DNA of 41,595 bases from NCBI GenBank assembly GCA_015231405.1, contig JADGBR010000012.1:1-41595 (forward strand), read 5' to 3'. The notes beneath the pieces were generated by a model that made no database searches, was not told the origin of the DNA, and saw only the letters and a program-made list of their open reading frames with translations. Numbering within the stretch: position 1 is the first letter of the stretch; each line of letters begins with the position of its first letter. Shown here piece by piece: positions 1 through 41,595 of this stretch. This DNA comes from Candidatus Omnitrophota bacterium. GTDB taxonomy: Bacteria; Omnitrophota; Gorgyraeia; Tantalellales; Tantalellaceae. The translations under genes and the position numbers were made by a program.

Positions 1-3000
1 CGGGGCGAAAGAGACGCATTTCGTGTACACAAAGGAGGAGACGCGAATGCCTTGTCCGGAGTAAGGGATGTAATGGACCATATCGTGCGGGTAGGGTTCT
101 TTACGAAACCGGCAAGAAACATACACGCGGGAGAAAGGTTCAGTTTCGAGACCACCCTCGACCTGGAGTATCCATACGACGTTCCGAAAGATTTCCGGGA
201 TCTGTTAAGGATGCCCGGCTGGCAGGCTGACGAAGTCCTTGAACGGATCGACGATCCGATGCTGGTGGAGATGATATCCGTTTACTTGAAGAATGATCCA
301 GGACCTGACGCGGGCGGAGAAGGAGCCGGAACGAGAATAAGGAAAGTGCTCGAGTTCATAAAAGGTAAATTTCCGTACCGGAAAAGGTACGGGCTTATGG
401 AAAAACTTCTCGGGATAGACCAGATGCACGCGTTATACGAAGAGGAGATCGTCGATGAGGATACCGGAATGACCGTTTCCGTGTTCAGCGGGACGTTCAA
501 GAATGGGCTTTTGGACTATTGCGAAAAAGAGTTCGGCGGCGACTACGAGAAAATAATCCGATACCTGTATGAGATGTTCACCCGAGACCAGGCTTTGAGC
601 GTCATTGAGAACCTGGCTGAGCGGATCTACGAGGAAACGCTCAGGAACGATGCGAAGGGTGAGGTCGACCCTGATCGGCAGGAACTCGCGATAGCGTTCT
701 TTGAGTTCATCGCGTCGCGAACGGTAGAATCGAGGAGCTTTACATTTAAACCCTATAATGTCTCGAAATATCTGGACCTGACTGAAAGAAAGATCAAAAG
801 GGATTTCCCGGATAAGAACCACTCCGGGATCCGCCCGGCTACCTACCGGGCGATCAAGCTGCTTACCGCCTCGGCGCCGTTATTTGTTTCCGCGGAATTA
901 ACGCAAGAAGCGGGAAAACGCCCCCTGACCGGTGAAAAAAAATCTTTCAGCGACTGTTATTACGGGTGGAACGAAAGGGACGCCAGAACGGTATGGGGGA
1001 CAAAACCCCTCAGCCAGTCCAGGTTCGTGACATTATTACCGCTACTTACCATAGGGGAAATTGAGGAGCTTCTCGGTATAAGAAAAGAGCTGGAAGCGTC
1101 AAAGAAATATATTGAATACAGGCATAACTACCAGGTCAACCCTTTCTATCTCGATACATACTCCGATATTCTTCTGAATCTGCTCATACGTAAAAAGATG
1201 GATGCCAATTGGGGTTTGAACAAGGACCCGGCAAAACTCATGGACGAATTCATGTCACCCTCATGGGTGTCGTCCGTCGAGTATGATCTTAAGGGAATAA
1301 CTAAGAACGCCCCGGAGGACCTGATCAAGATGCTCGGCGGTCTCCCGGTGCCGACAAAAGCCTTCGAGGAGACGATAGAAAAGTACGTAGAAGCCAAAAA
1401 ATGCTACGGATCGATCCCGGAATTCGCGAAGCTGATAAACCCGCCGAGCGTAATGACAGTGGCGGCCAATGGTTACCAGGAAAGGCTGAACGGCATAAAA
1501 AAACATGTGCAGGGAAAGCAAAAGGTACCCTACAGGGATGTCGTCTCGCAACTGGCGCGCGACACGTCGCTTTACAGCAAACTTTACTCGGAGTATCTCG
1601 ATAAGTGCGGCGAGGGGTATGTCAGGGGCGATCTAAAGCCTATGGACTTGAGGTTCGAATGGTTGAAAGGAAATATCCCGGAAATATCGCTGATGCGGGA
1701 TAGTATTTTCGACCTATGGGAAGCGGACGTCTTCCCCGAGGTGCTCAGCAATTCGTCGCGCGTGTACAAGCTCATATTGCAGCTGAGATCCGCTAAAAAA
1801 GGCACAGAAGTGCTGTCGGGGGGTATGTCGATATGGCAGATGGTGAACAGCCTCGAGGACGACATGGGAAAAATACAGTGCCTGGGCGAGCTCGATAAAA
1901 TGCCTCCGGAAAGACTTAGAGGCATACTGGATTTCTACCGGAAGGCCATACCCCAGGTCTTCATGTTGCAGAAGAAATCGCGTTTCGGGGCGATAGCTTA
2001 CAGGATATGGGAGATGCTGCCGGAGAACAAAGACAAAGGGTTTGGTGAGAGGATGGAAGCGATAAGCGGCCTCATGCCGGAACCGAGCGTATTGAGGGAC
2101 GGTGTTCTCATAAAAATGTCGAATAAATACATGACGCAGTTCGAAGAGGAGGGACGGGTCACGGACCTCTTATATGAGAATAACCTCATAAGTGACGATG
2201 AGGACCTGCGCGTTCATGATTTTCTAATGGATAACATAATAAGCAATTTTTCAACGGCCGGTACGAAAGCCAGGGTGGATATCCTCTTGTGGTTCATCGG
2301 GAGAATAAAGAAGCCGCCGTTCGTGGAGGAGCTCGAGGGAACGCTTAGCGTGGATTTCAGCACACTTCCGGGAGATCTTAAGTTCATGCCGGAATCGCTC
2401 AGGCACAGGGCCATGGAAGCGTTCATGCTCGGGGACAACGGCGTACTGGACCCGGATACGGAGAAACAGTTGCTGTTCATGGACCATTTTCTGGGTGAGA
2501 TCTTCGATGATGTGTTCCCGGAAGGGACGCGGGGCCTTGAAGACGGGGACAGGATCATACTGAAAGACGTGTTCCGCGCCATAATGCGCGCGTATCCCCC
2601 ATACCGCCGGGTTCAGGTGGTAAAGACCCTCGCGGACCTGAAATACAGGGCGGATTTCAATGAAGTCGATACCGGGGACAGACTTGCGGTGCTGCTCGGC
2701 TCGCTCGGGCCGGTGGGTATAAAAGTGGCCCAGTATTTTTCTGAGAGCAGGACGCTCGTGCCCGACGACGATCTCAGGAGAAAGCTGGGGCACTTAAGGA
2801 GCAACGCCCCGGAGATCCCGAAGCTCTCGCTTATGAGCGTGCTTATAAACGAGACGCCGCTTAAGGGGCATCTTGTAAAAGGAGTGGGTGACAAGGTCGG
2901 GGTAGCCAGCGTAAAACAGGTCAACAGGGGAATGTGGGTTGATCTGGACAAGCTCCATATCCTGATCTTCGCCAGGGCTTCAGATCAGGATAAGAGAGTG

Positions 3001-7057: not shown

Positions 7058-10000
7058 ATGTCTAAGAACAACTCAAATATCCCCATTACATTTCCCGGCG
7101 TCGACGTGGTCGAAGCTTCGGCGGGGTCGGGGAAGACTTACGCGCTGGCTAAGAGGTTCATTCAGCTTTTGATGCATCCGGGGATGGACCAGTTCGAGGA
7201 TCCGCTTAAGAGCGTGATGGCGGTCACGTTCACTAATAAGGCGACGGTCGAGATGCGGTCCCGGATGATCGAGTTCCTGAAAAGGATAGCGCTCGACGAT
7301 TTTAAGGATAAGGATACGCGCGCGGATATTCTCGGGACGCTCGAAGTGTCTCCGGCCCAAGCCGCGAAGAAAGCGGTCCTCATACTCGACGCGATACTCG
7401 AGAATTACGGCAGTTTTCAGGTGCGCACCATGGACAGTTTCGTGAATACCCTCATTAAAAGCTCGGCGTTCCATCTTGGGCTTTCACCCCGGGCGAGGAT
7501 CAAGGATGAATACCGTCCTTATCTCGAGTTCGCGCTGGAAAGGACCATCGACAGGGTGGATACGGATAAAGGCGTCCGGAAAGCCCTCGAGAGGTTCCTG
7601 GATTATTATATTTTCGTCGAGCAGAGGGACGGGTGGTTCTCGCGGAAGGATATGATAGGCTTATTGGACGCGCTCTTTAATTTTTCAACGAGCTACGGAG
7701 GCGAGTTCAGCCGGTCGAACGTGAAGCTAAGCGATATCATGAAAATGGAGGACGATCTCGTTGCGAAAGTTAACGGCCTCGTCGAGGTGGGCGCTCCCGA
7801 AGGCGTAAATATGACGTTCTGGAACGGCCTCGATAACTTCAGTATGAACGGGTTTTCCAAAGGCTTATCGGCGAGTTTTGATAAAGACGAGTTCAAAATG
7901 AAAAAAGGGTACCCTGCTCCCAAAGGCATGGCGGCGCTCTGGGACCCGATCAGGAAGGGCATAATAAAATATGTCGAAGCTAAATGCTATGACGGGCTGG
8001 ACGCCTATATCGAGATGTTCGATATTGTAAGGGACGATATGAGGGCGATCGCTGGGGAAGATGAGGTCATTTTTCTCCCTGAGCTGAACGTTATGGCCGG
8101 GAAACTTTTTAAGTCCGGCGGGATCGACATATCCGAACTCTATTACAGGCTCCAGGCCAGGATCCGGCATTATCTCATAGACGAGTTCCAGGATACGAGC
8201 AAGCTGCAGTGGGCTAACTTTGAGCCGTTAGTCGAGGAGGCGCTCTCGAACGGGGGGACACTCTTCTATGTGGGAGACAAGAAACAGGCCATTTTCGGGT
8301 TTAGGGGCGGGACAAGCCTTCTTTTTGACGGAGCGAGGCAGAGTTTCCGCTCTTTTGAGCCCAGGATAAAGGCGCTCGACAAGAATTACAGGTCGCGTGA
8401 GAATATCGTGAATTTTAACAACAATATTTTTTCATACGCGAATATAACGAGGTTATTGGATGCGATCGAAGAGAGAAAAAATATTCAGGTGATATTTTCG
8501 GTTGAGGAACGAAGCATGGTCTTGGACGCGTATCATGGCGCTCGGCAGTCTTTTAAGGAGGGGAAGGAAGGCGGTTTTGTCCGTTACGAGATACTGGACG
8601 CGGATGAGGCGGCCCCTGACGGGACGGAGGACAGGGGATCTGACGGATCGGGGGAAGATATCGGGGAAGAAGAACACGTTATCCCTGAGTCGATGCGGGA
8701 AAAGATCGGCGCGCTTATCTCTGACATAACCGCCAGGTATACCTACGCGGATATCGCCATCCTTGCCAGGACCAATAGCGACGTGAAGGAAATAACGTCA
8801 TGGCTTCTCGATGCCGGTATACCGGTCGAGAGCGAACGGACGCTGTCCATAAAGGAACATTTTCTCATAAAACAGATACTCGCGCTCCTCGGGTTCCTTT
8901 CGAGCCCAATAGACGATCTCGCCTTCGCAGCGTTCATCCTGGGCGATATTTTCGGGAAGATAACCGGCGTAGATAACGCAGGGATCAGGGATTTCCTGTT
9001 CGAACTGAGGGTCGAACGCGGCAAGGAGAGGGAAGAAGCCTTGTATTCGATCTTTAGGAAAAAATATCCCGCTATCTGGGATGACCTTATCGACGGGCTT
9101 TTTAAGAGCGTCGGCTTCGTCCCGCTGTATGAGCTTGTCATAACGATCTACCGCAGGATGAATGTCATCCGGAACTTTCCGGAATACCAGGGCTTTTTCA
9201 TGAAGTTCCTCGAGATAGTGAGGCGGAAGGAGGAAGACGCGCCGGGTATACGCGAATTCCTGGACCTTTTCGAAAGGATAGACGACAGGGAAATGTACGT
9301 GAGTGTCCCGCGGCTAGAGGCGGTGAGCGTCCTCACGGTGCATAAGGCCAAGGGTCTGGAGTTCCCTGTGGTGATAGTGCCGATGCTGAAAATGGACTTG
9401 AAGGTAGGGGCGGGGAGCCAGACGCTCAGGAAGCCTTACATTATCCGTGACGGAGAAGGCGGGTCATTGCGGCTGGCTCAGCTAAAAAAGGATCTTATCC
9501 GGTTCTCCGACGATCTGACGAAAGAATATTCGAAAGAGTACGCGCGGGCCCTTCTCGACGAGCTGAATAGCGTATATGTCGCATTGACAAGGGCCGAGGA
9601 TGAACTTTACGTTTTTATTCCGCAAAAAAGCGGGAATTCGCGGAATATAGCGCTCTCCTTATTTGACGAAAATGTCCGGGAAATAGGCGTAAAACGGGTT
9701 AAGGCGGAGAAGAAGAAAGAGGGTGACGAAATAATGGCGCTGGGCGCGTCCGAATACTCCGACTGGCTGTCTTTCCTCAGGGAAGAAACGACCGACGGTA
9801 ACGAGCTCGTCAACAGGCGAAGGCTGTTCGAAGGCGAGGTCTGTCACAGGATGCTGAGCTATATTCTCGATCTTTCCGGAGGTGATATGGACGCGCTCAT
9901 CGGGGACGCTGTAACTAAGACTGTTAGCGAGTTCCCTGAACTTTCTTCGGGGGATATCTCGAAATACAGGAAAAAAATAACGGCTCTGGTCAAAGATAAG

Positions 10001-10261
10001 TCGCTCGCGCATATTTTCTCGACCCAGATCGCCGCCGTATATAACGAAATGGAAGTGGTCGACCGTAACGCCATGACGAAACGAATGGACAGGGTGATCG
10101 TTACGGATAAAAAAGCCATAGTCGTTGATTATAAGAACTCTAAAGGCGACTACGCCGCCCAGGTGAAAGAATATATGTCGCTGCTAAAGGATATTTATCC
10201 GGGACGGGTTGTCGAGGGGTATCTTCTATATCTTGATACTCATGAATTGGAGGAATGTTGA
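7058..10261 (+). CDS. addA: AddA/RecB-like UvrD-family helicase-nuclease
   Basis: This 1067-residue protein is one subunit of a double-strand-break end-processing complex. SF1A motifs occur in order: Walker A SAGSGKT with K26, Walker B DEFQDT from D375, the VGDKKQAIFGFRGG motif near 405, LTVHKAKGLEFP near 764, and YVALTRAEDELYV near 840. A RecB-family nuclease closes the protein, with CHRMLSY near 930, MDRV, then VVDYKN with D1024 and K1026, and a Q-x3-Y helix. All catalytic positions appear intact. The family resects ends and loads recombinase for homologous repair. It is followed, after an 80-base palindromic repeat, by the AddB-like gene, so the two probably form one unit. The ATG at 7058 is preceded by only a weak ribosome site. 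Confidence 0.9.
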   Translation: MSKNNSNIPITFPGVDVVEASAGSGKTYALAKRFIQLLMHPGMDQFEDPLKSVMAVTFTNKATVEMRSRMIEFLKRIALDDFKDKDTRADILGTLEVSPAQAAKKAVLILDAILENYGSFQVRTMDSFVNTLIKSSAFHLGLSPRARIKDEYRPYLEFALERTIDRVDTDKGVRKALERFLDYYIFVEQRDGWFSRKDMIGLLDALFNFSTSYGGEFSRSNVKLSDIMKMEDDLVAKVNGLVEVGAPEGVNMTFWNGLDNFSMNGFSKGLSASFDKDEFKMKKGYPAPKGMAALWDPIRKGIIKYVEAKCYDGLDAYIEMFDIVRDDMRAIAGEDEVIFLPELNVMAGKLFKSGGIDISELYYRLQARIRHYLIDEFQDTSKLQWANFEPLVEEALSNGGTLFYVGDKKQAIFGFRGGTSLLFDGARQSFRSFEPRIKALDKNYRSRENIVNFNNNIFSYANITRLLDAIEERKNIQVIFSVEERSMVLDAYHGARQSFKEGKEGGFVRYEILDADEAAPDGTEDRGSDGSGEDIGEEEHVIPESMREKIGALISDITARYTYADIAILARTNSDVKEITSWLLDAGIPVESERTLSIKEHFLIKQILALLGFLSSPIDDLAFAAFILGDIFGKITGVDNAGIRDFLFELRVERGKEREEALYSIFRKKYPAIWDDLIDGLFKSVGFVPLYELVITIYRRMNVIRNFPEYQGFFMKFLEIVRRKEEDAPGIREFLDLFERIDDREMYVSVPRLEAVSVLTVHKAKGLEFPVVIVPMLKMDLKVGAGSQTLRKPYIIRDGEGGSLRLAQLKKDLIRFSDDLTKEYSKEYARALLDELNSVYVALTRAEDELYVFIPQKSGNSRNIALSLFDENVREIGVKRVKAEKKKEGDEIMALGASEYSDWLSFLREETTDGNELVNRRRLFEGEVCHRMLSYILDLSGGDMDALIGDAVTKTVSEFPELSSGDISKYRKKITALVKDKSLAHIFSTQIAAVYNEMEVVDRNAMTKRMDRVIVTDKKAIVVDYKNSKGDYAAQVKEYMSLLKDIYPGRVVEGYLLYLDTHELEEC

Positions 10262-10267
10262 TAACTT

Positions 10268-10347
10268 CGTCATTGCGAGGGCGCAATAGCGCCCGAAGCA
10301 ATCTATAAAAGTTTATATAGATTGCTTCGCTTCGCTCGCAATGACGG
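10268..10347. repeat. Interspersed palindromic repeat between the AddA and AddB genes
   Basis: The arms start CGTCATTGCGAG on the left and end CTCGCAATGACG on the right. The left arm has an extra GGCGC-aata-GCGCC mini-hairpin. The AddB-gene ATG at 10341 lies inside the right arm. Confidence 0.85.
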
Positions 10348-13196
10348 ACCATAACGGTAGAAGGTCAGATTTGAATAAGATAATTTGTTATAGCCCCAGG
10401 GAGAACTTTATCGGGAAACTGGCCGCGCATATCGATGCGGCGTACATGAAGCCCGGCAAGGATATGCGGAGGCTCGCCTGCGTCTTCGAGGGTAAACGCC
10501 CGTCGTTTTTTCTTAAGAAAGAGCTCTCTTCGCGTTTCCCCGGGACTTTCATCCCGCCCAGGGTATTCTCGATCGACGAATTCGCTTCTTACTTACTGAG
10601 TAAGAAGCGTCCCGTTAAACCTGTTCTCACTATGGACGCCTGCTACATGATCTACAATATCATAAAGGACAGAACGCCCGAAATACTCGAGAAAAGGGGC
10701 GGTTTCGCCGAGTTCCTGCCATGGGCCAGGGAGATAGCGGGATTCATCGATCTTATCGACGCCGAAGGGATACCCTCCGAAAAACTTTCCGGCGTAGAGG
10801 CGAGCGCTTCCATCGGTTACGACGTGCCGGAAAATATCAATAAGGTGCTCCGTAATATCGTTCTTATCCGGAGCGAATACCATAAAAGGTCCGAGGAAAA
10901 AGGCGTTTATCCAAGAGGTTTCAGGTACAGCATTCTCGCTCGAGAGATAGATAAAGAATGTTTCGCCGAATTTGACGAGATCTATTTCTGCGCTTTTTAT
11001 TTTATGCAGAAGACGCTCGTCGACGTGGCGAAATTTATTTGTTCCGCCGGTAAGGGGACGTTCTTTTTCCAGGCCGATGACGAGTCCGGCGGGCCTGTCG
11101 CCGAAATAGCCGCTTCTCTCGGCGTTGGCGTAAATTTCGAAAAGGGAACGCTGCCGGACGCCAAAAAGATCAGCTTGTATTCCGCGTCTGATACGCATGG
11201 ACAGGTCGCCGCCGCGCGGGATATCCTGAAAAAGAACTTGGCCGACCCGGGATCTACCGTCGTCGTTCTCCCTGACGCGGAAGCCGTCATACCGCTCATT
11301 TCCGAACTCGGTTCGGGTTTCGGCGATTTCAACGTTTCTCTGGGGTATCCTCTCAAAAGAAGCGCGCTCGCCGCGCTATTCGCCCTTATCGTGAAAGCCC
11401 AGAAGACGAGGAGATCCGGCAAATACTATACGAAGGATTATATATCTGTAATATCCCAGCCTCTCGCTAAGAACATGCTCGTCGAGTCGGATGAGCGTAT
11501 CACGAGGATCGTCGTCCATAAGATCGAGGAATACCTTATTTCGAACGACTCCGGCGGGATATCGGGGAGCATTTTCATCGAGCTTGCCGATATCGTAAAT
11601 GAAGATAAGATCTACGCTAACGCCGAAGAGACTTTCGGGTATATGGGTATCACCGCGCTTCCGGACGACATAAGGCGCGTGGTCGAATATCTCCACGAGA
11701 CCTTCTTTACGACATGGGAAAATATCACGACCCTCGCCGGATTCGCCGGGGCGCTCGAGAAATTTCTCGAACGCATGGCGTCGACGAGCGCGCTCGGCAA
11801 GTATCCCCTTAACGTAAAGACGGCCGAAAGGTTCTGGGCCATAGCCGACGAGATGAAAGGCGCTTCATGCGGCGCCGAAACTTTCAGGAAAGAGGAGATA
11901 TTCAGGATTTTCAATAATATCCTCGAAAGCGAAATGCTGAAATTCTCGGGGTCGCCGCTCAAGGGCCTCCAGGTCCTGGGTATCCTGGAAACTAGGGCCG
12001 TCAATTTCGATAACGCCGTTATCCTGGACGCGAACGAGGGGAAACTCCCCGCCGAAAGTCCGGACCATCCGCTCATCCCGAACGAGATCACCAGGAGCCT
12101 TGGCGTCGATATGGCGAAGAGAGAGGAGAAGGTCCAGGAATATCTCTTTAACCGCCTCATAAAATTCGCCAAAAGGGTGGATATCATCTATGAAGAAGCG
12201 ACCGGAAAGGAACGGAGCCGTTTTCTCGAGAAGACGCTCTGGGCTCTCGAGAAAGAGAAAAAGATTTTCGAGACCGTTAAGGCCCGTAAGGCCGGGTTCC
12301 GGGCGAGTATCTCCGGGAAAGAACGCTCTATCCCCAAGGGCCGGCGGGTAGCTGAATTCCTCATGGGGCACAGATATTCGGCCAGCAGCATCAATACGTA
12401 TCTCAACTGTCCTCTCCAGTTCTATTACCGCTACGCGCTTTTACTCGAGGAAAAGGACGAGATCTCCGATGTCGTCGAAGGCAGCGATATCGGCACTTTT
12501 ATCCACGAGCTGTTAGAGGCCGCTTATAAGCCGTTCATCGGGAAAAGACCCGAAATAGACGAAGGTTTTCGCGAAGCGCTGTTCAACGATCTCTCGAAAA
12601 AGTTCAAATATGTGTTCAGTAAGAAGATGCGAGCCGATTCGTTCATTCTCGAGACCGTGATGCGCGGTAAACTCGAAATGTTCCTGAAACACGAGTCCGA
12701 GCGCGACATTGAAGAGATACTGTATCTCGAGGAAAAGTTCACTCCGGATTTGGTCCTCCCGTCGAACACTTTCAAATTCCAATATACCGTCGACAGGGTA
12801 GATAAGCTCGGCGACGGGTCGATCCTGGTACTGGATTATAAGACCGGCCTCGACGCGAAAAAGCCCGTGGAAACGAAAAAGCTTGGCGGGATGGTCTATG
12901 ACCGCCGAGCGATCAAAAACAAAATTAGGTCGTTTCAGCTCCCGCTGTATTATCTCTTCGAAAAGGAAAAATATCCCGGACGGGAGATGAACGCCGCGCT
13001 CTATAGCCTGAGGAAACCCGGTTTAAAATATCTCATTACTCCGGGGAAGACCGATATCGCCCTCACCATGGAAATATGCCTTAGATCCCTGGACGCCATC
13101 ATGGCCGAGATCATCGATCCTGACGTCCCGTTCAGCGCTGATACTGACGATAACACGTCGTGCAGGTATTGTCCCTTCGGGGGGATGTGTTCTTAG
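10341..13196 (+). CDS. addB: AddB-like nuclease subunit with predicted 4Fe-4S staple
   Basis: The protein has 951 residues. The C-terminal third is an AddB/RecB-type PD-(D/E)XK nuclease: a YSASSINTYLNCPLQFYYRY entry segment with C690, GTFIHELLE, then VLDYKTG. It ends in C941-x2-C944-x5-C950, the spacing of the iron-sulfur staple of AddB. The N-terminal region is helicase-like, but where AddB often has Walker A this protein reads YSPRENFIGKL, so ATP binding is probably lost. It should pair with the AddA-like protein for end resection. The ATG at 10341 lies in a palindromic repeat with no ribosome site. TTG at 10371, behind GAAGG, is a credible alternative that starts just before the first conserved strand. 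Confidence 0.88.
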   Translation: MTDHNGRRSDLNKIICYSPRENFIGKLAAHIDAAYMKPGKDMRRLACVFEGKRPSFFLKKELSSRFPGTFIPPRVFSIDEFASYLLSKKRPVKPVLTMDACYMIYNIIKDRTPEILEKRGGFAEFLPWAREIAGFIDLIDAEGIPSEKLSGVEASASIGYDVPENINKVLRNIVLIRSEYHKRSEEKGVYPRGFRYSILAREIDKECFAEFDEIYFCAFYFMQKTLVDVAKFICSAGKGTFFFQADDESGGPVAEIAASLGVGVNFEKGTLPDAKKISLYSASDTHGQVAAARDILKKNLADPGSTVVVLPDAEAVIPLISELGSGFGDFNVSLGYPLKRSALAALFALIVKAQKTRRSGKYYTKDYISVISQPLAKNMLVESDERITRIVVHKIEEYLISNDSGGISGSIFIELADIVNEDKIYANAEETFGYMGITALPDDIRRVVEYLHETFFTTWENITTLAGFAGALEKFLERMASTSALGKYPLNVKTAERFWAIADEMKGASCGAETFRKEEIFRIFNNILESEMLKFSGSPLKGLQVLGILETRAVNFDNAVILDANEGKLPAESPDHPLIPNEITRSLGVDMAKREEKVQEYLFNRLIKFAKRVDIIYEEATGKERSRFLEKTLWALEKEKKIFETVKARKAGFRASISGKERSIPKGRRVAEFLMGHRYSASSINTYLNCPLQFYYRYALLLEEKDEISDVVEGSDIGTFIHELLEAAYKPFIGKRPEIDEGFREALFNDLSKKFKYVFSKKMRADSFILETVMRGKLEMFLKHESERDIEEILYLEEKFTPDLVLPSNTFKFQYTVDRVDKLGDGSILVLDYKTGLDAKKPVETKKLGGMVYDRRAIKNKIRSFQLPLYYLFEKEKYPGREMNAALYSLRKPGLKYLITPGKTDIALTMEICLRSLDAIMAEIIDPDVPFSADTDDNTSCRYCPFGGMCS

Positions 13197-30162: not shown

Positions 30163-32523
30163 ATGCATAAAAAAAATGGTAAGAGATGTTTATTTTGCCG
30201 GAAATTAATGGCTTTATCTGTCGCGTTGTTAATGTTGTTAAATGAACCTGGCTTCGGGCTTTCGCCGACTTCGTTTTTCAAACCTATTACGCGTTCGGGG
30301 AAAGATGAGACAGGTATGAAAGGCGGTCCGAACTCGGATCGATTTTTCCTCGAAGCGGTCTCTCAATATGCGGATAGCGCTAATTCCGTTTACGCCGGGA
30401 TCGGTATTTCGGAAAAGACAAAGACTGATGAGATCTCGGAACAGGTGGGTATGGCCGTAGACGCTTACAGGGAAAGCGCCGAGCATGTATCAGCGGATAA
30501 TAAGAGAGATATGAGCGAATTCCCGTTAATGCCCGCGGATATTTTCGGGCTCGATATAAGGAGAGAAATTACCGGGGATAGCCTGGAATTCGCGACGAAG
30601 CTGAACGACGAGACTTACAACGACAGGAATGATACGCGCGGGGTCCGTTATCCGGCAAAACCGTGGTTTGACACCTCAAAAAGCCTGATCTACACCCACG
30701 GGCGGTATTCTTTCAGGTGCCTCGAGAATATGAATATGAAAAAACACGGGAACGCGCAGTATGTTTTCGGTATTATGCGCGACGGCGAGATGATCGGCCA
30801 CGGGATCGCCATGCATTTAAAGGGTCAGAGGAACGCTCTTTTTCGGTACGGGATCCACAAACGTTTCAGGGAACGCGGTCACGGAAGCGCCGTGCTGCTT
30901 CCCCTTATGTCGATGTGCGTAAATACCGATACCGGGCTTTTTAGTGATGACGGCGTCGACCGGCTCGAACTTATGACAGGCGCTTTCCAGAACAAAAATG
31001 ACACATGGTATTACGACCTCTTAAAAAAGCTTCTCATTAAAGCTGGGTTCTTTCCGGGGAAGAACGATGGCCTTTGTTTTTCGCTAAAAACGAACTATTT
31101 CGACGTTAAAGAGGAAGAGGGGTATTACCCTGCGCCTGATGATATCAGGGTAGTGGAATGGATAAAGAAAGGAGTGTGGCAAGTTGTGGATAAAAAGTCC
31201 GGGCGTTCGTGGTTCATGAAGATCAAACAAAAGGATCAGACAGAAAGAGAGATCTTGGGGTACAAGCTCGCCTCCGAGGTAGGAGCGAATGGCGTCCCAT
31301 GGCTCGAATGGCGACTGGCCGATATCGACAACGAACGGAGGATGTTCGAGGAGGACATAGATGAACGCGTATGGGAAAGGGAGCTTAAGGAATTCGGTTA
31401 CGATCCCGAAAGAGGGGAAGGGATAGAGGACGCAAAGATCGTTCTGGTAAGGGATATCGACGATATGAAGGAGGAAGATATTCTCTTCGGTGGGCGGCCG
31501 TCGCTCTCTGATCTACTGGTATTTCTGGTGTTCACTTTCCCTGAGGATATTACCGAGGGATATAACAGTATCGTATCAGTAATGAACGGGGTTAAAAAAT
31601 TTTTCGTTTACGATCTTGAATCGATAGCGCATATAAGAAGCCCGGAAGCTCCGGTAGGGAGCTTTACGAACTGGATCAGAGAAAATCCCGGGGAATTGAC
31701 CCCCGCGAAGATAGAGTGGGCGATCAGAAGGGTTAAAGGCCTTACGGATGAAAGGTTGTCGAAATATGTTTCGGAGATGGGGGTAAGCGCTACTACCAAG
31801 GACTCCGTGCGGGAGGTGCTGGAAAGGAGAAGGGACAGCATCGAGGATATGGTAGAACGCGTCATCAGAGTGGCTATGAAAGGGTCAGAGCCCACGGATC
31901 CGGCCCCGATCGATGTCGAGACCGAGCGGAAGCATTCAGTCTCATTCAAAGACGAATTCGAGCTATTACAGAGGAAGGACGAAACGTCCGTTTCTTTCAT
32001 AGCCGTAAGCAACAGCTGGATAAAAGGGTATGAACACGGTAATGAGCAGTACGAGGCCCTCAATCCGCTGCTCTCAGGGATACGGAATTTCTGCAGGAAT
32101 AATCGTATAGCTTTCATAGAGGGAGATGACGGCAAAGTTGCCGGAGATGTGAACGCCCTTGATAGAGGCGCCAGGGGGATAGTGCTCGGAGGCAAAGAAG
32201 CGGTATCTCTTATCGAAACCCGTCGTAAGGAGCTTGGTATCGAAAAGAACGGTAACGTTCTCCTCGCGGAAGTTGACAGTTCGGACCTCAACGAGGAGAG
32301 CTATATGCGTCTTATGGAGATGCTTTCTTTGATGCTTTCTCTTTTGAGGTATCGGGGAATGCAGGGAGATTACATCGAGAAAAATACGGTCCATATACAG
32401 ATATCCCATCCCGAACTCGGCTTCCTTTTTGATGAAAATAGGAATGTCATAAAATTCTGTCCCGCCAAACCTGAGGACGTCGAGTCGCTTCGGCCCATCT
32501 ACGCCGCCCAGGCATCGGCGTAA
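30163..32523 (+). CDS. Large secreted protein with GNAT-like and kinase-like regions
   Basis: This protein has 786 residues. A signal peptide occupies about 1-33 (GFGLS cut region). Residues 165-310 resemble a GNAT acetyltransferase, with strands before RYGIHKRFRERGHGSAVL, where R236-x2-G239-x-G241 fits the acetyl-CoA pyrophosphate loop. Residues 330-490 resemble a kinase-like fold of the HipA or lanthionine-kinase sort: a strand pair with FMKIK (K353, K355), E361, N468 and D484 in FVYDLES. The last 170 residues form an alpha/beta domain of unknown kind. All these assignments are by pattern only. An exported acetyltransferase or kinase would lack the usual cofactors, so the regions may be binding folds or the protein may be retained. 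Confidence 0.6.
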   Translation: MHKKNGKRCLFCRKLMALSVALLMLLNEPGFGLSPTSFFKPITRSGKDETGMKGGPNSDRFFLEAVSQYADSANSVYAGIGISEKTKTDEISEQVGMAVDAYRESAEHVSADNKRDMSEFPLMPADIFGLDIRREITGDSLEFATKLNDETYNDRNDTRGVRYPAKPWFDTSKSLIYTHGRYSFRCLENMNMKKHGNAQYVFGIMRDGEMIGHGIAMHLKGQRNALFRYGIHKRFRERGHGSAVLLPLMSMCVNTDTGLFSDDGVDRLELMTGAFQNKNDTWYYDLLKKLLIKAGFFPGKNDGLCFSLKTNYFDVKEEEGYYPAPDDIRVVEWIKKGVWQVVDKKSGRSWFMKIKQKDQTEREILGYKLASEVGANGVPWLEWRLADIDNERRMFEEDIDERVWERELKEFGYDPERGEGIEDAKIVLVRDIDDMKEEDILFGGRPSLSDLLVFLVFTFPEDITEGYNSIVSVMNGVKKFFVYDLESIAHIRSPEAPVGSFTNWIRENPGELTPAKIEWAIRRVKGLTDERLSKYVSEMGVSATTKDSVREVLERRRDSIEDMVERVIRVAMKGSEPTDPAPIDVETERKHSVSFKDEFELLQRKDETSVSFIAVSNSWIKGYEHGNEQYEALNPLLSGIRNFCRNNRIAFIEGDDGKVAGDVNALDRGARGIVLGGKEAVSLIETRRKELGIEKNGNVLLAEVDSSDLNEESYMRLMEMLSLMLSLLRYRGMQGDYIEKNTVHIQISHPELGFLFDENRNVIKFCPAKPEDVESLRPIYAAQASA

Positions 32524-34717: not shown

Positions 34718-34864
34718 ATGTCTGTCTTCGTATGGGTTAAGAAATTTTTCCGCAAGAAAAAGGACAAAGGCGTGAGAACAGCCGATGGTGAGTCTTCTGC
34801 CGCGTCGCGCAAAAAAGACGAAGAGGCCGTTAAGGAAAGACTGAAGTCCCTGGGATACATGTGA
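34718..34864 (+). CDS. 48-residue peptide ending in a phosphatase-type tail
   Basis: The ATG at 34718 follows GGGGGG, and the stop overlaps the next start by four bases (GTGA). The N-terminus VFVWVKKFFRKKKDK is amphipathic and basic and could lie on the membrane. The C-terminus EEAVKERLKSLGYM matches the closing helix (acidic, then ERLxSLGY) that many alkaline-phosphatase-superfamily and sulfatase proteins carry at their own C-termini. Neither of the two phosphatases encoded directly downstream carries it. It may be a detached tail acting in trans; this is inference. Confidence 0.6.
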   Translation: MSVFVWVKKFFRKKKDKGVRTADGESSAASRKKDEEAVKERLKSLGYM

Positions 34865-36195
34865 GCATGAAAAAAGCGTTTATTATAGGTCTCGACTCAG
34901 CCCCGCCTGGTATCATATTCGACCGTAAAGAGGAGTTCCCCAATATCTCGAAGCTCATCGATAACGGCGTATCCGCCAAAATGAGGAGCATCCATCCACC
35001 GATAACAATACCCGCCTGGATGGCCATGGCGACAGGTAAAGACGCCGGCGCTCTCGGGATATACGGTTTTCGCCAGAGGGAAGGCGCCTCTTATGCCGGA
35101 ATACGGCTCTCCATGGCTAGTGACTTCATAGATCCAGCCATCTGGGATATTATCGGGGCTAAAGGCAAGAAATCCGTTCTCGTCTCGGTCCCGCCGAGTT
35201 ATCCGCCGCTTCCCGTCAACGGTTTCAGGGTGTCGTGTTTCATGACGCCTGACGCCGAAAGGGATTATACGTATCCGGCCGCGCTAAAGAAGGAAATAGA
35301 GGACAAATACGGCCCTTTCATTTTCGACGTTCCGTTCCGGAAAGGATCTAAGAGTAAGCTCAAGGACGATCTCTTCAAAATGGCGGACCAGCATATCGGA
35401 GTTCTGAAATATCTCATGATAACAAAACCCTGGGATCTTTGTATGTACGTTGATATAGGAGCTGACCGGGTACAGCACGCTTTCTGGGAGCATCCCGACA
35501 TAGTGGTCGATTACTATAAAAAGATGGACCGGGGCATAGGCGAACTCCTGGAAGGGCTTGATGACGATACTGTCGTTTTTATCGTATCCGACCACGGGGC
35601 GAAAACGATGAAAGGGTCTTTTGCCATTAACCAGTGGCTTATGGACAAAGGATATCTTGTCCTTGATGAGTCGCCCAAAAAGGGCCTCGAGATCGAAAAA
35701 GCAAAAGTGAACTGGTCGAAAACAAAAGTCTGGGCTTGGGGAGGATATTACGCCAGGATCTTTTTCAACGTAATGGGCCGAGAGGAGAAAGGGATCATAC
35801 CGCCCATGAGATACGAGATCTGGAGAGACAAGCTCATAGACGAGATCGAGGATATCAAAGGGCCAGGCGGCGAAAAATGGATTACGCGCGCGGCGAGGCC
35901 CGAGGAGTATTACAAGGAAATAAAGGGAGACTCACCGGATCTTATGGTGTATTTCGACGATCTGTCATACAGGGCCGCCGGGACCATGGGGCATGAAAGC
36001 GTATATCTCAGCGAGAATGACACGGGTCCAGACGGAGCCATGCATGACTGGGACGGGATATTCGTCATGTACGATCCTTTGGATAAAAGACCACGGAGGC
36101 TGGATACGATCAGTATACTTGACGTCGCGCCGACTATCCTCGACGTCATGGGGTTCGTTATACCGTCTGATATGCGGGGAAAGAGCATTTTATGA
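34861..36195 (+). CDS. Alkaline-phosphatase-superfamily hydrolase (type I phosphodiesterase/pyrophosphatase-like), cytoplasmic form
   Basis: This protein has 444 residues and no signal peptide. Metal and nucleophile positions are in place: D12 in IGLDS, T49 in PPITIPAW, DRVQH with D and H, VSDHG, and a late MHDWDG histidine. The family hydrolyses phosphate mono- or diesters or transfers phospho-groups using two zinc ions. The substrate is unknown; genes like this in other bacteria often sit with surface-glycan genes. The GTG at 34861 gives a four-base overlap with the peptide gene; ATG at 34867 is an alternative. The stop overlaps the next ATG by four bases. Confidence 0.87.
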   Translation: MSMKKAFIIGLDSAPPGIIFDRKEEFPNISKLIDNGVSAKMRSIHPPITIPAWMAMATGKDAGALGIYGFRQREGASYAGIRLSMASDFIDPAIWDIIGAKGKKSVLVSVPPSYPPLPVNGFRVSCFMTPDAERDYTYPAALKKEIEDKYGPFIFDVPFRKGSKSKLKDDLFKMADQHIGVLKYLMITKPWDLCMYVDIGADRVQHAFWEHPDIVVDYYKKMDRGIGELLEGLDDDTVVFIVSDHGAKTMKGSFAINQWLMDKGYLVLDESPKKGLEIEKAKVNWSKTKVWAWGGYYARIFFNVMGREEKGIIPPMRYEIWRDKLIDEIEDIKGPGGEKWITRAARPEEYYKEIKGDSPDLMVYFDDLSYRAAGTMGHESVYLSENDTGPDGAMHDWDGIFVMYDPLDKRPRRLDTISILDVAPTILDVMGFVIPSDMRGKSIL

Positions 36196-38264
36196 TATTC
36201 CTGGGTTACATCGATCCGGGTTCTGGTTTTGTTATCGCTACGGGGATCGGGGGATTCTTAGCGGCCATTTTTGGCGGGTTTCTGGGTGGGATCCTTCTCT
36301 TTTTCAAACGCATATTCAAATTCCTTAAAGATCGCCGGAAGGCCACGCGGGCGATTTTGGCGTTCTTATTAACGGTTTCAATTTGCGCTGGAGTTGTCAT
36401 GAACATGAACGGATCGGATTACCGGAACAGGCTGATAATATTGGGTTTTGACGGGCTCTCTCCGGATATGCTCGAACCTTTGATGGCGGGCGGGGAACTC
36501 CCGAATTTCGCTAAGCTGAAAGACGAGGGCTCGTACACCAGGATGTCCTCGACCAACCCGCCCCAGTCGCCGGTGGCGTGGACGGGTTTCGCCACGGGCA
36601 AAAATCCCGGGAAGAACGGTCTGTACGATTTCATAGTGAGGGATCCCATGGACTATTCCCTTAAACTTTCGATGTCGGATGTCTCGGGAGATAAAGCAAG
36701 AAAAGTCGTCAAGGCGAAGAGAATATGGGATTACGCTACTGATAAAAAAATCCCGGCTGTTATCCTGAACTGTCCTGTGACGTTCCCGCCGGACAGAATG
36801 AACGGCCGTATGCTCTCCGGCATGGGCGTCCCCGATATCCTCGGCACCGAAGGCACTTTCACATACTACACGACAGAAGACCCCCACGGCAAAGCAGACA
36901 CCGGCGGCAAGGTATTCTACGTCCCACGTCCCACATCCCACGTCCCACAATACGATTATGACATTTCACTCATCGGCCCAAAATTTAAAAAAGGAGAAGA
37001 AGTCTATAACTTCAAAGTCCCGGTGAAGGTCCAGATAAAAGACGCCGGGTACGCTATCGCCGAGTTCCAGAAAAAGAAAGTTGTCCTTAAAACCGGCGAA
37101 TGGAGCCCGTGGCAAGCCGTAACCTTCGATATCGTCCCGTTCAGGAAAGCGAAAGGCATATTCAGGTTTTACCTCAGGGAGGCAAACTCCGGATTTAAAC
37201 TTTACGTAAGCCCCATAAATTTCGACCCGCGCGATCCTCTTTTCCCGATATCCTATCCTAAAGATTACAGCCGTGAAATAGCCGAAAAGATAGGGTTATA
37301 TCATACCCAGGGCATGCCTATGGATACCTGGGCTCTTAATGAGGGTCGTCTTGAGGAAAAGCCTTTCATGGAGATGATGGAAGAAGTGCTTTCCTCGCGG
37401 AAAAAACTGCTCGATATGGAGCTGGCTAGGACCGATAGAGGCGTGGTATTCGCCTATTTCGAGTCGACCGATATCGTCCAGCATATGTTCTTTAGATACA
37501 ACGATCCCGAAAGCCCTCTTTACGTGAAAGACGGGGAGAAATACAGGGATATGATAAAGGACTGGTACAAGAAAATGGACCGCGTCCTGGGCGAGGTCAT
37601 GAAGAAACGGGGAAAGGACGATACGCTGATAGTCCTGTCCGATCACGGGTTCACATCGTTCCGAAGAGCGGCGCACCTCAACAGCTGGCTCAGGCAGAAC
37701 GGGTATCTCGAGCTCATCGATCCCTATCAGGAAGAGGGAGGCGAGCTTCTGGCGGATATCGATTGGAAAAAAACGAAGGCTTATTCCATAGGCTTCGGGG
37801 CGATATATATCAACCAGGAAGGGAGGGAAAGGGACGGGATAGTAAAGCCCGGAATTGAAACCGAAAAATTGAAAGACGAGATATCGGGAAAGCTCGGGAG
37901 TTGGGTTGACGCAAAAACTAACTGCAAGGTCGTTAGCCAAGTTTATAAAAAGGAAGAGATATTTTGGGGTCCGTTTACCGGTGAAATGCCCGACCTTTAC
38001 GCCGGTTTCAATAACGGATATCGTGCTTCATGGCAAACCGCTATAGGCGCGACCCCTAAGACGCTTCTGGAAGATAATATGAAAAAATGGTCCGGTGACC
38101 ACCTGGTCGATCCGGCTCTGGTCCCCGCTGTGCTATTCACCAACACGAAAATAACCAAAAAAGACCCTTCCATCCTCGACATAACCCCGACGGTGATGAA
38201 GATGATCGGGTATACTGAAAAAGAGATCGAGGACCGAGATTTGGACGGAACGCCGTTGTTCTAA
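36192..38264 (+). CDS. Membrane-anchored alkaline-phosphatase-superfamily hydrolase
   Basis: This protein has 690 residues. The N-terminus YIDPGSG and two hydrophobic segments (about 12-38 and 54-70) anchor it, leaving a large domain outside the membrane. Catalytic features: D87 in GFDGL, S126 in PPQSPVAW as nucleophile (serine where the partner has threonine), STDIVQH, LSDHGF and a late GDH. An insert of about 90 residues (roughly 240-345) rich in strands separates the halves. Within it, bases 36921-36948 are four heptamers encoding VPRPTSHVP. The start overlaps the previous stop (ATGA), so the two hydrolases are translationally coupled and perhaps act on related substrates. Confidence 0.87.
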   Translation: MIFLGYIDPGSGFVIATGIGGFLAAIFGGFLGGILLFFKRIFKFLKDRRKATRAILAFLLTVSICAGVVMNMNGSDYRNRLIILGFDGLSPDMLEPLMAGGELPNFAKLKDEGSYTRMSSTNPPQSPVAWTGFATGKNPGKNGLYDFIVRDPMDYSLKLSMSDVSGDKARKVVKAKRIWDYATDKKIPAVILNCPVTFPPDRMNGRMLSGMGVPDILGTEGTFTYYTTEDPHGKADTGGKVFYVPRPTSHVPQYDYDISLIGPKFKKGEEVYNFKVPVKVQIKDAGYAIAEFQKKKVVLKTGEWSPWQAVTFDIVPFRKAKGIFRFYLREANSGFKLYVSPINFDPRDPLFPISYPKDYSREIAEKIGLYHTQGMPMDTWALNEGRLEEKPFMEMMEEVLSSRKKLLDMELARTDRGVVFAYFESTDIVQHMFFRYNDPESPLYVKDGEKYRDMIKDWYKKMDRVLGEVMKKRGKDDTLIVLSDHGFTSFRRAAHLNSWLRQNGYLELIDPYQEEGGELLADIDWKKTKAYSIGFGAIYINQEGRERDGIVKPGIETEKLKDEISGKLGSWVDAKTNCKVVSQVYKKEEIFWGPFTGEMPDLYAGFNNGYRASWQTAIGATPKTLLEDNMKKWSGDHLVDPALVPAVLFTNTKITKKDPSILDITPTVMKMIGYTEKEIEDRDLDGTPLF
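36921..36948. repeat. Heptamer repeat island inside a coding region
   Basis: GTCCCAC, GTCCCAC, ATCCCAC, GTCCCAC. It is read in frame within the membrane-anchored hydrolase, in the strand-rich insert away from the catalytic motifs. Confidence 0.85.
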
Positions 38265-38338
38265 CCTACCTGCCGTAGTCCCTATCACACGGGGAATCCC
38301 GTTTAGCATGTTGATTTCTATTCTTCACTATAGAAGTA

Positions 38339-38368
38339 TTGACCAATCTAACTATTTTATGGTATAAT
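38339..38368 (+). promoter_or_regulatory. Sigma-70 promoter of the second giant gene
   Basis: TTGACC (38339-38344), 18-base spacer, TATAAT (38363-38368). A perfect 9-bp inverted repeat (ACTATAGAA 38327-38335, TTCTATAGT 38386-38394) brackets it, as at the YjbQ promoter. The short ACGGG-GAAT-CCCGT hairpin just after the previous stop may end the operon. Confidence 0.65.
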
Positions 38369-38402
38369 GATGCGAAATTGTAACTTTCTATAGTATTAAA
38401 AT

Positions 38403-41400
38403 ATGCAGTTAACTTATCATATGCCTAGCATTATTAATAAAGTCATATCTGTATTATTATCGGGGGTGCTGTTCTTTGGTGATATATCATCCGCGATAGA
38501 AACACGTCCAATAATTATTCCCCAACAAAACGACAAACTCTCTCCTGTTTCCGGGTTCAGCGAGGAAGATCTTGAGGCAGTATCCAAGGCGATGCAGCGG
38601 CTTGGCCTTGCGACAGGGAGCGGTTCCACCTTAGAGCAGAGGGAATATACGGCTTTTCTTTACGCGAATAGCCTTATCGCAAGAATTTTAACGAGATACG
38701 GGGGTAATGTCGAGGCTGATCTTCTCAAGGAATTGATACAAAAGCATATCGGGGACCAATACGATTCGGAAAAGTTCAAATGGGGCAAACTCGAAAGGAA
38801 TAATGCCGGGGTATACAGGCTTCCGGTAGAGAGTGAACAGGGTCAGCCGGTAAAGGCTTTATATTATTTTCTGCCCGGAGCCGGAACTCGAGGCTTAATG
38901 GAAATGTCCGGGAAGGTCGGGAAATACGATGTCAGGGTTTTCGCGGAGAAAGGGAAGAAAGTTTCGGATAGCGAAGAACTCAAGGAAGGGCAAGTGGTCC
39001 TTTTTATCCGCCGGAACCGCGAGACAGGCAATTATATTTCGGCGGTGGAACTTGTCGTGAGGAAAGTATTGGACGCCGCGGACGGTAAAGAGGTCATATT
39101 GCAGAAGGGCGGCTATTTGAGCGATACGGCCGTTAACGCCGTCCATTCGTATTTCGGGGACAGAGGTGAAAAGCTTTTCGTTCAGGACGAGATCTTTATG
39201 CTCGGAGATCCAAAACCGGCAAAGAAGAAGGAGCGCCGCGGAAAAAAGAAAGGCAAAGGGTTCGATCCGTCGGGTAACTCTCTTCCCGCGTACGCGGATC
39301 TCGGCATCGACAAGAACCTCAAAGCGGATTTCACGGCGGGCGAGATATCGAAAATGATAGATCTCGCGGTCAAGGGGGACATAGCCGCGATAAGGGCCAT
39401 GCATGTAACTACCGGAGATAATTCCTTCGGGGAGCTGATCAGGATCTCTTTCATTAAACTATCGGAAAGGATAGCTAAACTGCCTGACGGCGAGAAAGCC
39501 ACGGTTGGAGGCATATTAAGGTCGCCCCATAATACCGCACTAACGATCAATAGCCTGTCGATCGAGACGGCCAGCCGGGGGATCTTTCGGAAACGTATGG
39601 GTATGTTCGGGAGAATGCTTGGGAGAGCTTCTGCCAGATATTTCGACAAAAAAAATAAAAAAGTTTCGATAGTCCTGGACATGCGTTTCGTAAAGGCTCT
39701 TCTCTCAGGCGGGTATAGGGATATCGCTGCCGAGATACTGGCGGAGAGGCTGGCCCATGAGCTGGCGCATGATAATGAACTCAGGGAGGAATATCGCGAG
39801 AACAATGAGGAAACGCGGGTAATAATTTACGTGGATATACCGCTCTTTAAGGCCATCAGGGATAACGCACCTCTTCGTTCATCCATAGAAAGGTTCAGGC
39901 AAAATAAGCGTTTGTCGTTGACGATGTACCATTCCGGAAGGTATTTCAGGAAGCTCGAGGAGTGGTCCGGTATCCCGGGCTATAAGGGCCTATTCAAAAT
40001 CGTTCATGCCTATATTAAGAGCGTGTCTACTGGCCCTTGGGAGGGAAAGGGGTACCCTGTTCCCGTGGCGGTCAGAATGGCAGGGGGCATATATGAGCCG
40101 GGGTCGATAGTTGATTATTTTAATCTCATTTTATCCAATGAGTCAATTAATAGCCCGGATAGCGGGATAAGTCTCGGGGAGATAGCCAGCCGCGTTGGAG
40201 CGGATCAAGCCGATATAAAACGGGCAATGGCTTTTCTGGTCCGGACCCTCAAGATCGTAATGTCGGACACGGGACATTTAAGCAGGGATGCTCGTTACTA
40301 TATTCCTGAAAGCGTAAGGATAAAAAGGAACCTGTTGATCGCGCTTTTATCGGCGAAAGGCCTTAGTGAAGTAAAACAAAAAATAAGTCATGAAGAAGGG
40401 CTGGAAATATCGCGGCTGGTATCCTTTGTCAGCCTCCACTACCATGATCCCGACCTGAGAGTGCCGGATAATAGGGCGCCTATTACCCCGGGCATTCTTG
40501 TCGCCGGGATGAAAGATGTGCTCGGGAATATGGATGAGTTGCGAACTGTTCTTTCGAACGGGCTTGAGCCTTATTCAGATAGGGCCGGGAAGAGCAAAAA
40601 TAGAACCGGGAATAACGGATACACCAGCGAGAGATCACCCGGTAGTGTCATTCTGTCGATGGTAGGGAAAAACAGGGATTTTATAGATACCGGCGCGTTC
40701 TCTGCACTGATCAGACGCGGCGGCATCGGTTTCGTAATCGACCCCGCGTATGTGTCGCTTCAGGAAAACGGGTTTTACGCGGCGGGCAGACACCTGTCGC
40801 CGGGGTCTTATTACAGGCCATGTTACCAGGGGCCGCACGGGTTTATTTATAACAGCATGATATACCGCCGCGGAAAGGGCTTTAATGTGCCTTTTGACGC
40901 CGTTATGAGCGAAAGAGCCATCCCGCGGGGAGCTATTAAAAAACTGGTTTTGAACCGTTTATCGAGGAGCGCGGAAACGCGATCTACTTTTAATGAGGAG
41001 CTGGGGGCAGTCAGAAAAATATTAGCGGAAGAATTCCCCTTAGAGGGTATACAGATAATCGACGAGTTCGGATGGATATGGTATGAACAATCGGCGTTCT
41101 CCCATGATACGGTAAGCTCGAAAGAAAAGATAATAGACGGCCTGATAGGGCTCGTCAACGACGAGGGCTTTAGGACCAATATGGGTATAGCTAATCAGGG
41201 AATGGATGAAAATGAGCTTAGAAGGGCCCTGGACATGCTGGGTCCTCTGGATGGCGCCGATATTCTTTTCGCGGGAGAAGGTGTGACCGTAATGCCGTTA
41301 CTGGCCCTTCTCAAAGGCGCGAAGAAGGTGACGATAGCGGACGCAGAAGACTCTATCAATGCCAGATGGGGTGTGATGATCGATCTTTTCAGGGATGACC

Positions 41401-41595
41401 TCCGGAAAGTAGGCATAGAACTTTCGCCGAAGAATATAAGGGTGTGCAAAATGAACATGATCAGGGAGGGGGTCCCATACGGGAAGTACACTCATGTGGT
41501 TTGTTTGAATGTCTTTAACCCTATTCCCAATACAATGCGGGAGCTTGACCGGGGAAGCGTTCCTTTTAATAAAATGGGATCGGCAGTTATGGGCT
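38403..41595 (+). CDS. Giant exported multidomain protein, 3' end outside window
   Basis: The frame is open from ATG 38403 to the window edge, at least 1064 residues. Residues 1-31 are a signal peptide (core KVISVLLSGVLFF, cut near ISSA). Residues about 40-440 are mixed alpha/beta with a lysine-rich linker (KPAKKKERRGKKKGK). H452-E453-L-A-H456 sits in a helix (LAERLAHELAHDNE), the pattern of a zinc-dependent gluzincin or an HExxH-containing peptidase. Residues about 590-650 look like a winged helix (LGEIASRVGADQADIKRA). From about 950 a Rossmann-like methyltransferase start appears: DILFAGEGVTVMPLLALL, then KKVTIADAED. No ribosome site is clear, but a strong promoter is present. The whole is not a family I can name. 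Confidence 0.75.
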   Translation, partial: MQLTYHMPSIINKVISVLLSGVLFFGDISSAIETRPIIIPQQNDKLSPVSGFSEEDLEAVSKAMQRLGLATGSGSTLEQREYTAFLYANSLIARILTRYGGNVEADLLKELIQKHIGDQYDSEKFKWGKLERNNAGVYRLPVESEQGQPVKALYYFLPGAGTRGLMEMSGKVGKYDVRVFAEKGKKVSDSEELKEGQVVLFIRRNRETGNYISAVELVVRKVLDAADGKEVILQKGGYLSDTAVNAVHSYFGDRGEKLFVQDEIFMLGDPKPAKKKERRGKKKGKGFDPSGNSLPAYADLGIDKNLKADFTAGEISKMIDLAVKGDIAAIRAMHVTTGDNSFGELIRISFIKLSERIAKLPDGEKATVGGILRSPHNTALTINSLSIETASRGIFRKRMGMFGRMLGRASARYFDKKNKKVSIVLDMRFVKALLSGGYRDIAAEILAERLAHELAHDNELREEYRENNEETRVIIYVDIPLFKAIRDNAPLRSSIERFRQNKRLSLTMYHSGRYFRKLEEWSGIPGYKGLFKIVHAYIKSVSTGPWEGKGYPVPVAVRMAGGIYEPGSIVDYFNLILSNESINSPDSGISLGEIASRVGADQADIKRAMAFLVRTLKIVMSDTGHLSRDARYYIPESVRIKRNLLIALLSAKGLSEVKQKISHEEGLEISRLVSFVSLHYHDPDLRVPDNRAPITPGILVAGMKDVLGNMDELRTVLSNGLEPYSDRAGKSKNRTGNNGYTSERSPGSVILSMVGKNRDFIDTGAFSALIRRGGIGFVIDPAYVSLQENGFYAAGRHLSPGSYYRPCYQGPHGFIYNSMIYRRGKGFNVPFDAVMSERAIPRGAIKKLVLNRLSRSAETRSTFNEELGAVRKILAEEFPLEGIQIIDEFGWIWYEQSAFSHDTVSSKEKIIDGLIGLVNDEGFRTNMGIANQGMDENELRRALDMLGPLDGADILFAGEGVTVMPLLALLKGAKKVTIADAEDSINARWGVMIDLFRDDLRKVGIELSPKNIRVCKMNMIREGVPYGKYTHVVCLNVFNPIPNTMRELDRGSVPFNKMGSAVMG

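What the first reader, a model, noticed from the sequence alone, without database searches (positions are those of the whole stretch)
38403..41595. Giant exported protein combining an HELAH motif, a winged helix and a methyltransferase-like fold
The long open frame carries a signal peptide and at least three enzyme-like or binding modules that normally work in different compartments. A Rossmann-like SAM site outside the cytoplasm would be unusual. The gene has a strong promoter inside an inverted repeat.
Basis: partly seen in the sequence, partly recalled or inferred. Interest (0 to 1): 0.6.

Follow-up and report, generated by a model that had tools for sequence, protein, structure and literature searches.

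The report
Bookended exported multi-module Omnitrophota protein
The long gene encodes one of a large, undescribed family of soluble, export-tagged Omnitrophota proteins that always carry the same tail, usually the same head, and very different, apparently working enzymes in between; this gives the phylum's puzzling large proteins a common design that can be tested.

Summary
The open frame, signal peptide, HELAH motif and promoter between inverted-repeat arms are real. The window ends at a 10-N assembly gap; across it the frame continues to 1393 aa. The host belongs to Candidatus Omnitrophota. HExxH plus a downstream Glu (E469) is invariant in 23 homologues, so a metallopeptidase-like module is well supported by sequence, though not by fold. 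The winged helix is plausible. The "methyltransferase" is not confirmed: no Pfam or NCBIfam match, an uninterpretable structure model, and the only homologue found has AEG where this protein has GEG.

The larger result is architectural. The protein is bookended: an N-cap (signal peptide, L[SA]PxSxF, about 110 aa) opens it and a C-cap of about 175 aa closes it. Neither cap has a Pfam or PDB relative. C-caps end 3-25 aa before the stop in 29 of 29 ORFs. About 30 ORFs carry both caps. Across 197 class genomes, C-cap occurs in 29, N-cap in 36, both in 27. Payloads differ completely (helicase, MutS, radical SAM, GNAT, methyltransferase, M20 and others), with key catalytic motifs intact where inspected. 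Best reading: exported enzymes delivered to another cell; the delivery step is inferred.

The parts
38403..41594 (+). Coding frame, first 1064 codons of a 1393-aa protein; continues through a 10-N gap to about C3:42584 outside the window
38339..38368 (+). Sigma70-like promoter TTGACC-18-TATAAT (11/12, TG before the -10)
   Evidence: consensus match only
38327..38394 (.). 9-nt perfect inverted repeat ACTATAGAA / TTCTATAGT flanking the promoter
38403..38495 (+). Sec signal peptide, likely cleaved after A31 (S-S-A/I-E)
   Evidence: Layout conserved in N-cap homologues; no SignalP available
38538..38558 (+). Post-signal motif L46-S-P-V-S-G-F52 (family pattern L[SA]PxSxF)
38427..38948 (+). N-cap module, residues 9-182 (signal + motif + about 110-aa domain)
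   Evidence: 18 of 19 family genomes, 36 of 197 class genomes; no Pfam or PDB match
38949..39221 (+). Segment 183-273, recurs in a 3715-aa frame of a relative
39537..39974 (+). HELAH module, residues 379-524, metallopeptidase-like
   Evidence: 28 of 292 class genomes; alignment A3
39756..39770 (+). H452-E453-L454-A455-H456
39807..39809 (+). E469, invariant, candidate third metal ligand
40101..40433 (+). Winged-helix-like segment, residues 567-677
   Evidence: Recurs in large ORFs L013, L120, L121, L122; model low confidence
41184..41594 (+). Rossmann-like segment (GEGVT at residues 958-962), methyltransferase identity not shown
   Evidence: one homologue L119; no family match
30163..32523 (+). 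Second protein of the same kind in this window: signal, LSPTSFF, weak GNAT-like region, C-cap ending 1 aa before the stop
   Evidence: 6e-15; 97.8%

Best explanation
The gene encodes a bookended, exported multi-module protein of an Omnitrophota bacterium. Shown by sequence: an N-cap (signal peptide, L[SA]PxSxF motif, about 110-aa domain), a variable middle (here a 183-273 module, a HExxH...E metallopeptidase-like module, a winged-helix-like segment and an unproven Rossmann-like segment) and a C-cap at the very C-terminus. Inferred: the signal sends the protein through Sec and is removed; the post-signal motif and the two caps are common handling parts (recognition, retention or packing, then release through an outer-membrane route such as a secretin); the middle is a swappable enzyme cargo. 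Because the family's cargoes need ATP, SAM, NAD or Fe-S clusters and keep their active-site motifs, they most likely work in the cytoplasm of another cell (prey, host or partner). Here the HELAH module would act as a metallopeptidase, either on a target protein or on the protein itself to free its cargo.
For: C-cap within 3-25 aa of the stop in 29/29 complete ORFs. At least 18 fetched ORFs carry both caps, and about 29 ORFs can be matched by contig and frame length between the two class-wide lists. Genome co-occurrence 27, against 5.3 expected (phylogeny not corrected). Payloads unrelated to each other: MutS_V, Upf1-like helicase, radical SAM with B12, response regulator, PPDK, HATPase, LMW phosphatase, GNAT, methyltransferases, epimerase, M20, GH130, with Walker A, CxxxCxxC and other motifs intact where inspected. 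Signal layout conserved and mostly no other TM segment. HExxH plus E invariant. Three secretins in the genome. Published host-dependent traits in the phylum (PMC10066038).
Against: No delivery machinery has been linked to the caps. No structure for either cap. Cofactor-dependent enzymes exported unfolded would have to refold elsewhere. Signal peptide judged by pattern, not by a trained predictor. No proteomics. Structure models of the HELAH and Rossmann regions are low confidence and had no significant fold match.
Confidence: 0.42

Rival explanations
1. The N-terminal segment is an uncleaved anchor that holds cytosolic-type enzymes at the inner membrane, and the modules act in the producing cell (signalling, nucleic-acid or metabolic functions). 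The caps serve assembly into a large complex.
For: Payloads are ordinary cytosolic enzymes with intact motifs; this needs no delivery system.
Against: Positive charges precede the hydrophobic segment and AxA-like sites follow it, which predicts N-in and the rest outside; the segment is short and signal-like.
Confidence: 0.25
2. Extracytoplasmic enzymes: exported and kept in the periplasm or on the surface by the caps, working on envelope or extracellular substrates.
For: Some payloads would suit this (M20 peptidase, GH130, HExxH peptidase); signal peptide; secretins.
Against: Helicases, MutS, radical SAM, response regulators and kinases need cytosolic cofactors or substrates.
Confidence: 0.2
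3. Domain hoarding: modules are accreted and serve as bulk scaffold or adhesion mass with little catalytic role.
For: Modules recur piecemeal in very large ORFs up to 19,582 aa; published giant ORFs have few recognisable domains (PMC10066038).
Against: Key catalytic motifs are kept in the payloads inspected; HExxH and E invariant across diverse homologues.
Confidence: 0.1
4. Assembly or gene-calling artefact joins unrelated genes.
For: A 10-N gap lies in this gene; a 58-N gap in L125 splits another.
Against: The same bookended design recurs in many independent genomes, most without gaps.
Confidence: 0.03

Closest known systems
Giant ORFs of Omnitrophota (Seymour et al. 2023, PMC10066038), including the 39,678-aa protein of Velamenicoccus archaeovorus
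   Same: Same phylum; large multi-module proteins proposed to act on other cells.
   Different: Those are over 20 kb and described as poorly conserved with few domains; the V. archaeovorus one and most in class Omnitrophia have multiple TM helices. The family here is mostly 600-6,700 aa, mostly lacks TM segments beyond the signal, has recognisable enzymes and two conserved caps.
Polymorphic toxins (CdiA/Rhs type; from general knowledge)
   Same: Conserved trafficking part joined to a variable enzyme cargo.
   Different: There the variable part is the C-terminus; here the C-terminus is conserved and the middle varies. No immunity gene was sought.
T9SS cargo of Bacteroidota (signal peptide plus conserved C-terminal sorting domain; from general knowledge)
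   Same: Same two-ended logic: Sec signal plus conserved C-terminal domain around diverse enzymes.
   Different: The C-cap is about 175 aa with an alternating alpha/beta sequence pattern and matches no T9SS model in NCBIfam; a SprA search was empty but uninformative.
Zincin metallopeptidases with HExxH...E
   Same: HExxH motif and a conserved downstream Glu.
   Different: No sequence match in Pfam or PDB; human MATCAP appeared among fold hits only at noise level (E 0.7 or worse).

Membership tests
Zincin metallopeptidase | HExxH motif conserved in homologues | tested here: met
   Invariant in 23 of 23 rows of A3; 3 of the weakest further hits deviate
Zincin metallopeptidase | Conserved third metal ligand downstream | tested here: met
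   E469 invariant, D478 nearly so; metal binding itself not tested
Zincin metallopeptidase | Zincin fold | tested here: inconclusive
   Core at pLDDT about 60-77 with HExxH on a helix; no significant PDB match
Zincin metallopeptidase | Proteolytic activity | not testable with these tools
   Needs purified protein
Class I SAM methyltransferase | GxGxG loop after strand 1, kept in homologues | tested here: not met
   GEGVT here, AEGPD in the only homologue L119
Class I SAM methyltransferase | Acidic residue after strand 2 | tested here: met
   D980 conserved in L119
Class I SAM methyltransferase | Family or fold match | tested here: inconclusive
   No Pfam match; hhalign to the neighbouring methyltransferase-like domain pairs motif I but at E 0.23; model pLDDT 39.7
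Winged helix DNA-binding domain | wHTH fold | tested here: inconclusive
   Recurring segment; helices predicted at low confidence
Omnitrophota giant ORF (published sense) | ORF longer than 20 kb | tested here: not met
   1393 aa, about 4.2 kb
Omnitrophota giant ORF (published sense) | Multiple TM helices (reported for many of them) | tested here: not met
   One N-terminal segment only
Polymorphic toxin | Variable C-terminal toxin domain | tested here: not met
   C-terminus is the conserved part
Polymorphic toxin | Adjacent immunity gene | not tested
   -
T9SS cargo | C-terminal domain of a known T9SS sorting family | tested here: not met
   26 C-caps against NCBIfam, no such match
T9SS cargo | T9SS translocon in the genome | tested here: inconclusive
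   PF14349 absent, but it also rang in none of the control genomes

The most novel reading that the evidence does not exclude
Some Omnitrophota families possess an undescribed delivery system in which a post-signal L[SA]PxSxF motif, an N-cap and a C-cap form a universal shipping frame for many unrelated cytosolic enzymes, giving each cell a large, rapidly diversifying set of exported effectors for host or prey cells.
Probability: 0.33. Interest if true: 0.85.

Novelty: new variant of a known kind. Interest (0 to 1): 0.62.

Why it matters
Omnitrophota are widespread, tiny and thought to be host-dependent, but their large proteins have been described as poorly conserved and functionally opaque (PMC10066038). 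Two conserved caps give searchable handles that turn this into a defined protein family, make payloads listable genome by genome, and make the export question directly testable with reporter fusions. If the delivery reading is right, it is a new way to ship very diverse enzymes between cells.

Tried and rejected
Kelch repeat at the window end: PDB hits to designed SAKe proteins (E 8e-5) come from summing six near-identical repeats of about 4 bits each; rejected. MATCAP-like fold for the HELAH module: hits at noise. Viral carriage of the C-cap: none found in viral contigs. Gene pairs with N-cap and C-cap on separate ORFs: L125 is split by 58 N and L148 by one in-frame TAG, so probably single genes; L151 has no gap and stays open. 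SprA search uninformative. The promoter/inverted repeat was not pursued further; strong promoter-like sites occur before several related genes, but the inverted repeat was not checked there.

Full report
What is there. The finding is the 3' end of the window, a + strand frame from ATG 38403 open to the edge. The window is C3:1-41595 of an assembly of 3.66 Mb. Its edge coincides with ten N; beyond them the same frame continues and stops, giving 1393 aa. Two further large ORFs with hydrophobic N-termini follow, 2132 aa (kinase-like and methyltransferase-like matches) and 1688 aa (PPDK_N and response regulator). Neither carries the caps described below.

Host. Six relatives of the HELAH module found in named genomes are all Candidatus Omnitrophota / Omnitrophica MAGs, so the window is assigned to that phylum by inference from its relatives.

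The stated parts. Signal peptide: K13, hydrophobic 14-28, S-S-A/I. The same layout with mostly clear AxA sites is seen across homologues, and no further TM-like segment follows. HELAH: residues 452-456 as stated. The module (379-524) was found in 28 of 292 class genomes, mostly inside large frames of up to 19,582 aa. In a 23-row alignment H452, E453, H456 and also E469 are invariant, and R449 and D478 nearly so. This is the pattern of a HExxH...E zinc site. It has no significant Pfam or PDB sequence match (two of 23 members weakly hit the putative metallopeptidase DUF4344, best E 0.0018) and the model, usable only in part, gave no significant fold match. The winged-helix-like stretch recurs in other large frames. 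The Rossmann-like stretch is weak: no Pfam match, one homologue with AEG for GEG, a poor model and a profile comparison at noise. The promoter and inverted repeat exist.

The design. No full-length homologue exists in 59 relatives; different parts match different large proteins. Residues 9-182 (N-cap) match the N-termini of many otherwise unrelated proteins in 18 of 19 family genomes, and the last about 175 residues (C-cap) match C-termini in 15 of 19. In fetched loci C-caps end 3-25 residues from the stop in 29 of 29 ORFs, and N-caps start within 60 residues of the start of the stop-to-stop frame, except for four internal copies in one 6677-aa frame. The position was not part of the selection; the presence of both caps partly was, because loci with both were preferred. 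The unselected class-wide searches give C-cap in 29 and N-cap in 36 of 197 genomes, both in 27 (hypergeometric 3e-23 before any correction for kinship), with about 29 ORFs holding both when matched by contig and frame length (my own matching of the two tables). Across 285 phylum genomes C-cap is seen in 29, all but one in the same class. The N-cap and C-cap have no significant relatives in PDB or Pfam (C-cap also not in NCBIfam).

The post-signal motif. L[SA]PxS/T lies within 45 residues after the hydrophobic segment in 20 of 46 large ORFs, against 0.004 expected per window from the rest of the same proteins. This is partly circular, since the N-cap profile contains the motif and some window entries are duplicated in L002; proteins brought in through the C-cap or as neighbours (30163-32523, L123, two in L152, L134) show it independently.

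The cargo. Pfam matches between the caps cover GH130, M20, epimerase, HATPase, metallophosphatase, methyltransferases, LMW phosphatase, GNAT, MutS_V, response regulators, PPDK, B12-binding with radical SAM, and Upf1-like helicases. Walker A, CxxxCxxC, the HATPase DNGAG box and response-regulator aspartates are intact where inspected. Several family members have no recognisable domain at all.

Interpretation. A signal peptide in front of ATP-, SAM- or Fe-S-dependent enzymes is only useful if the protein reaches another cytoplasm or if the signal is really an anchor. The charge distribution and cleavage-like sites favour export; the genome has three secretins. I therefore favour exported enzymes for use in another cell, at 0.42, with the anchored-in-own-cell rival at 0.25 and extracytoplasmic enzymes at 0.2. 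The architecture itself I hold at about 0.9, export at about 0.7; delivery into another cell is inference.

Literature. Omnitrophota giant ORFs are known (PMC10066038, PMC11573180, PMC12057145) and described as poorly conserved with few annotated domains. I found no description of these caps, within a library that lacks preprints and most subscription journals.

Noticed in passing
window 30163-32523 +: Second bookended protein in this window: signal, LSPTSFF, weak GNAT-like region, possible kinase-like stretch, C-cap to the end.
   Followed up: partly
window 1-5658 +: 5'-truncated 1885-aa frame with an ABC1 atypical kinase domain; no C-cap detected.
   Followed up: partly
L002 6551-18028: Two further large signal-bearing ORFs directly downstream (2132 and 1688 aa) with kinase-like, methyltransferase-like, PPDK and response-regulator modules but no caps.
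   Followed up: partly
G000: Genome is 3.66 Mb, against 1.1-2.1 Mb for nearly all family relatives; at least 17 C-cap hits were scored.
   Followed up: no
L129 6510-19830 -: Tandem pair of 2208- and 2212-aa bookended proteins, both with Upf1-like helicase (AAA_11/AAA_12) payloads.
   Followed up: no
L152: Four consecutive C-cap ORFs (920-1294 aa) in one relative, none with a Pfam match.
   Followed up: no
L148 5075-5077: Single in-frame TAG separates the N-cap half from the C-cap half of one gene; error, decay or readthrough not distinguished.
   Followed up: partly
L150: 6677-aa frame with four extra internal copies of the N-cap domain without signal, and a C-cap near its end.
   Followed up: no
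L105, L095: HELAH-like modules inside open frames of 19,582 and 15,308 aa.
   Followed up: no
window 34861-38264 +: Two consecutive type I phosphodiesterase / nucleotide pyrophosphatase genes upstream of the finding.
   Followed up: no
window 7058-13196 +: Adjacent UvrD-type helicase (with C-terminal nuclease-like match) and PDDEXK nuclease genes, resembling an AddAB pair.
   Followed up: no
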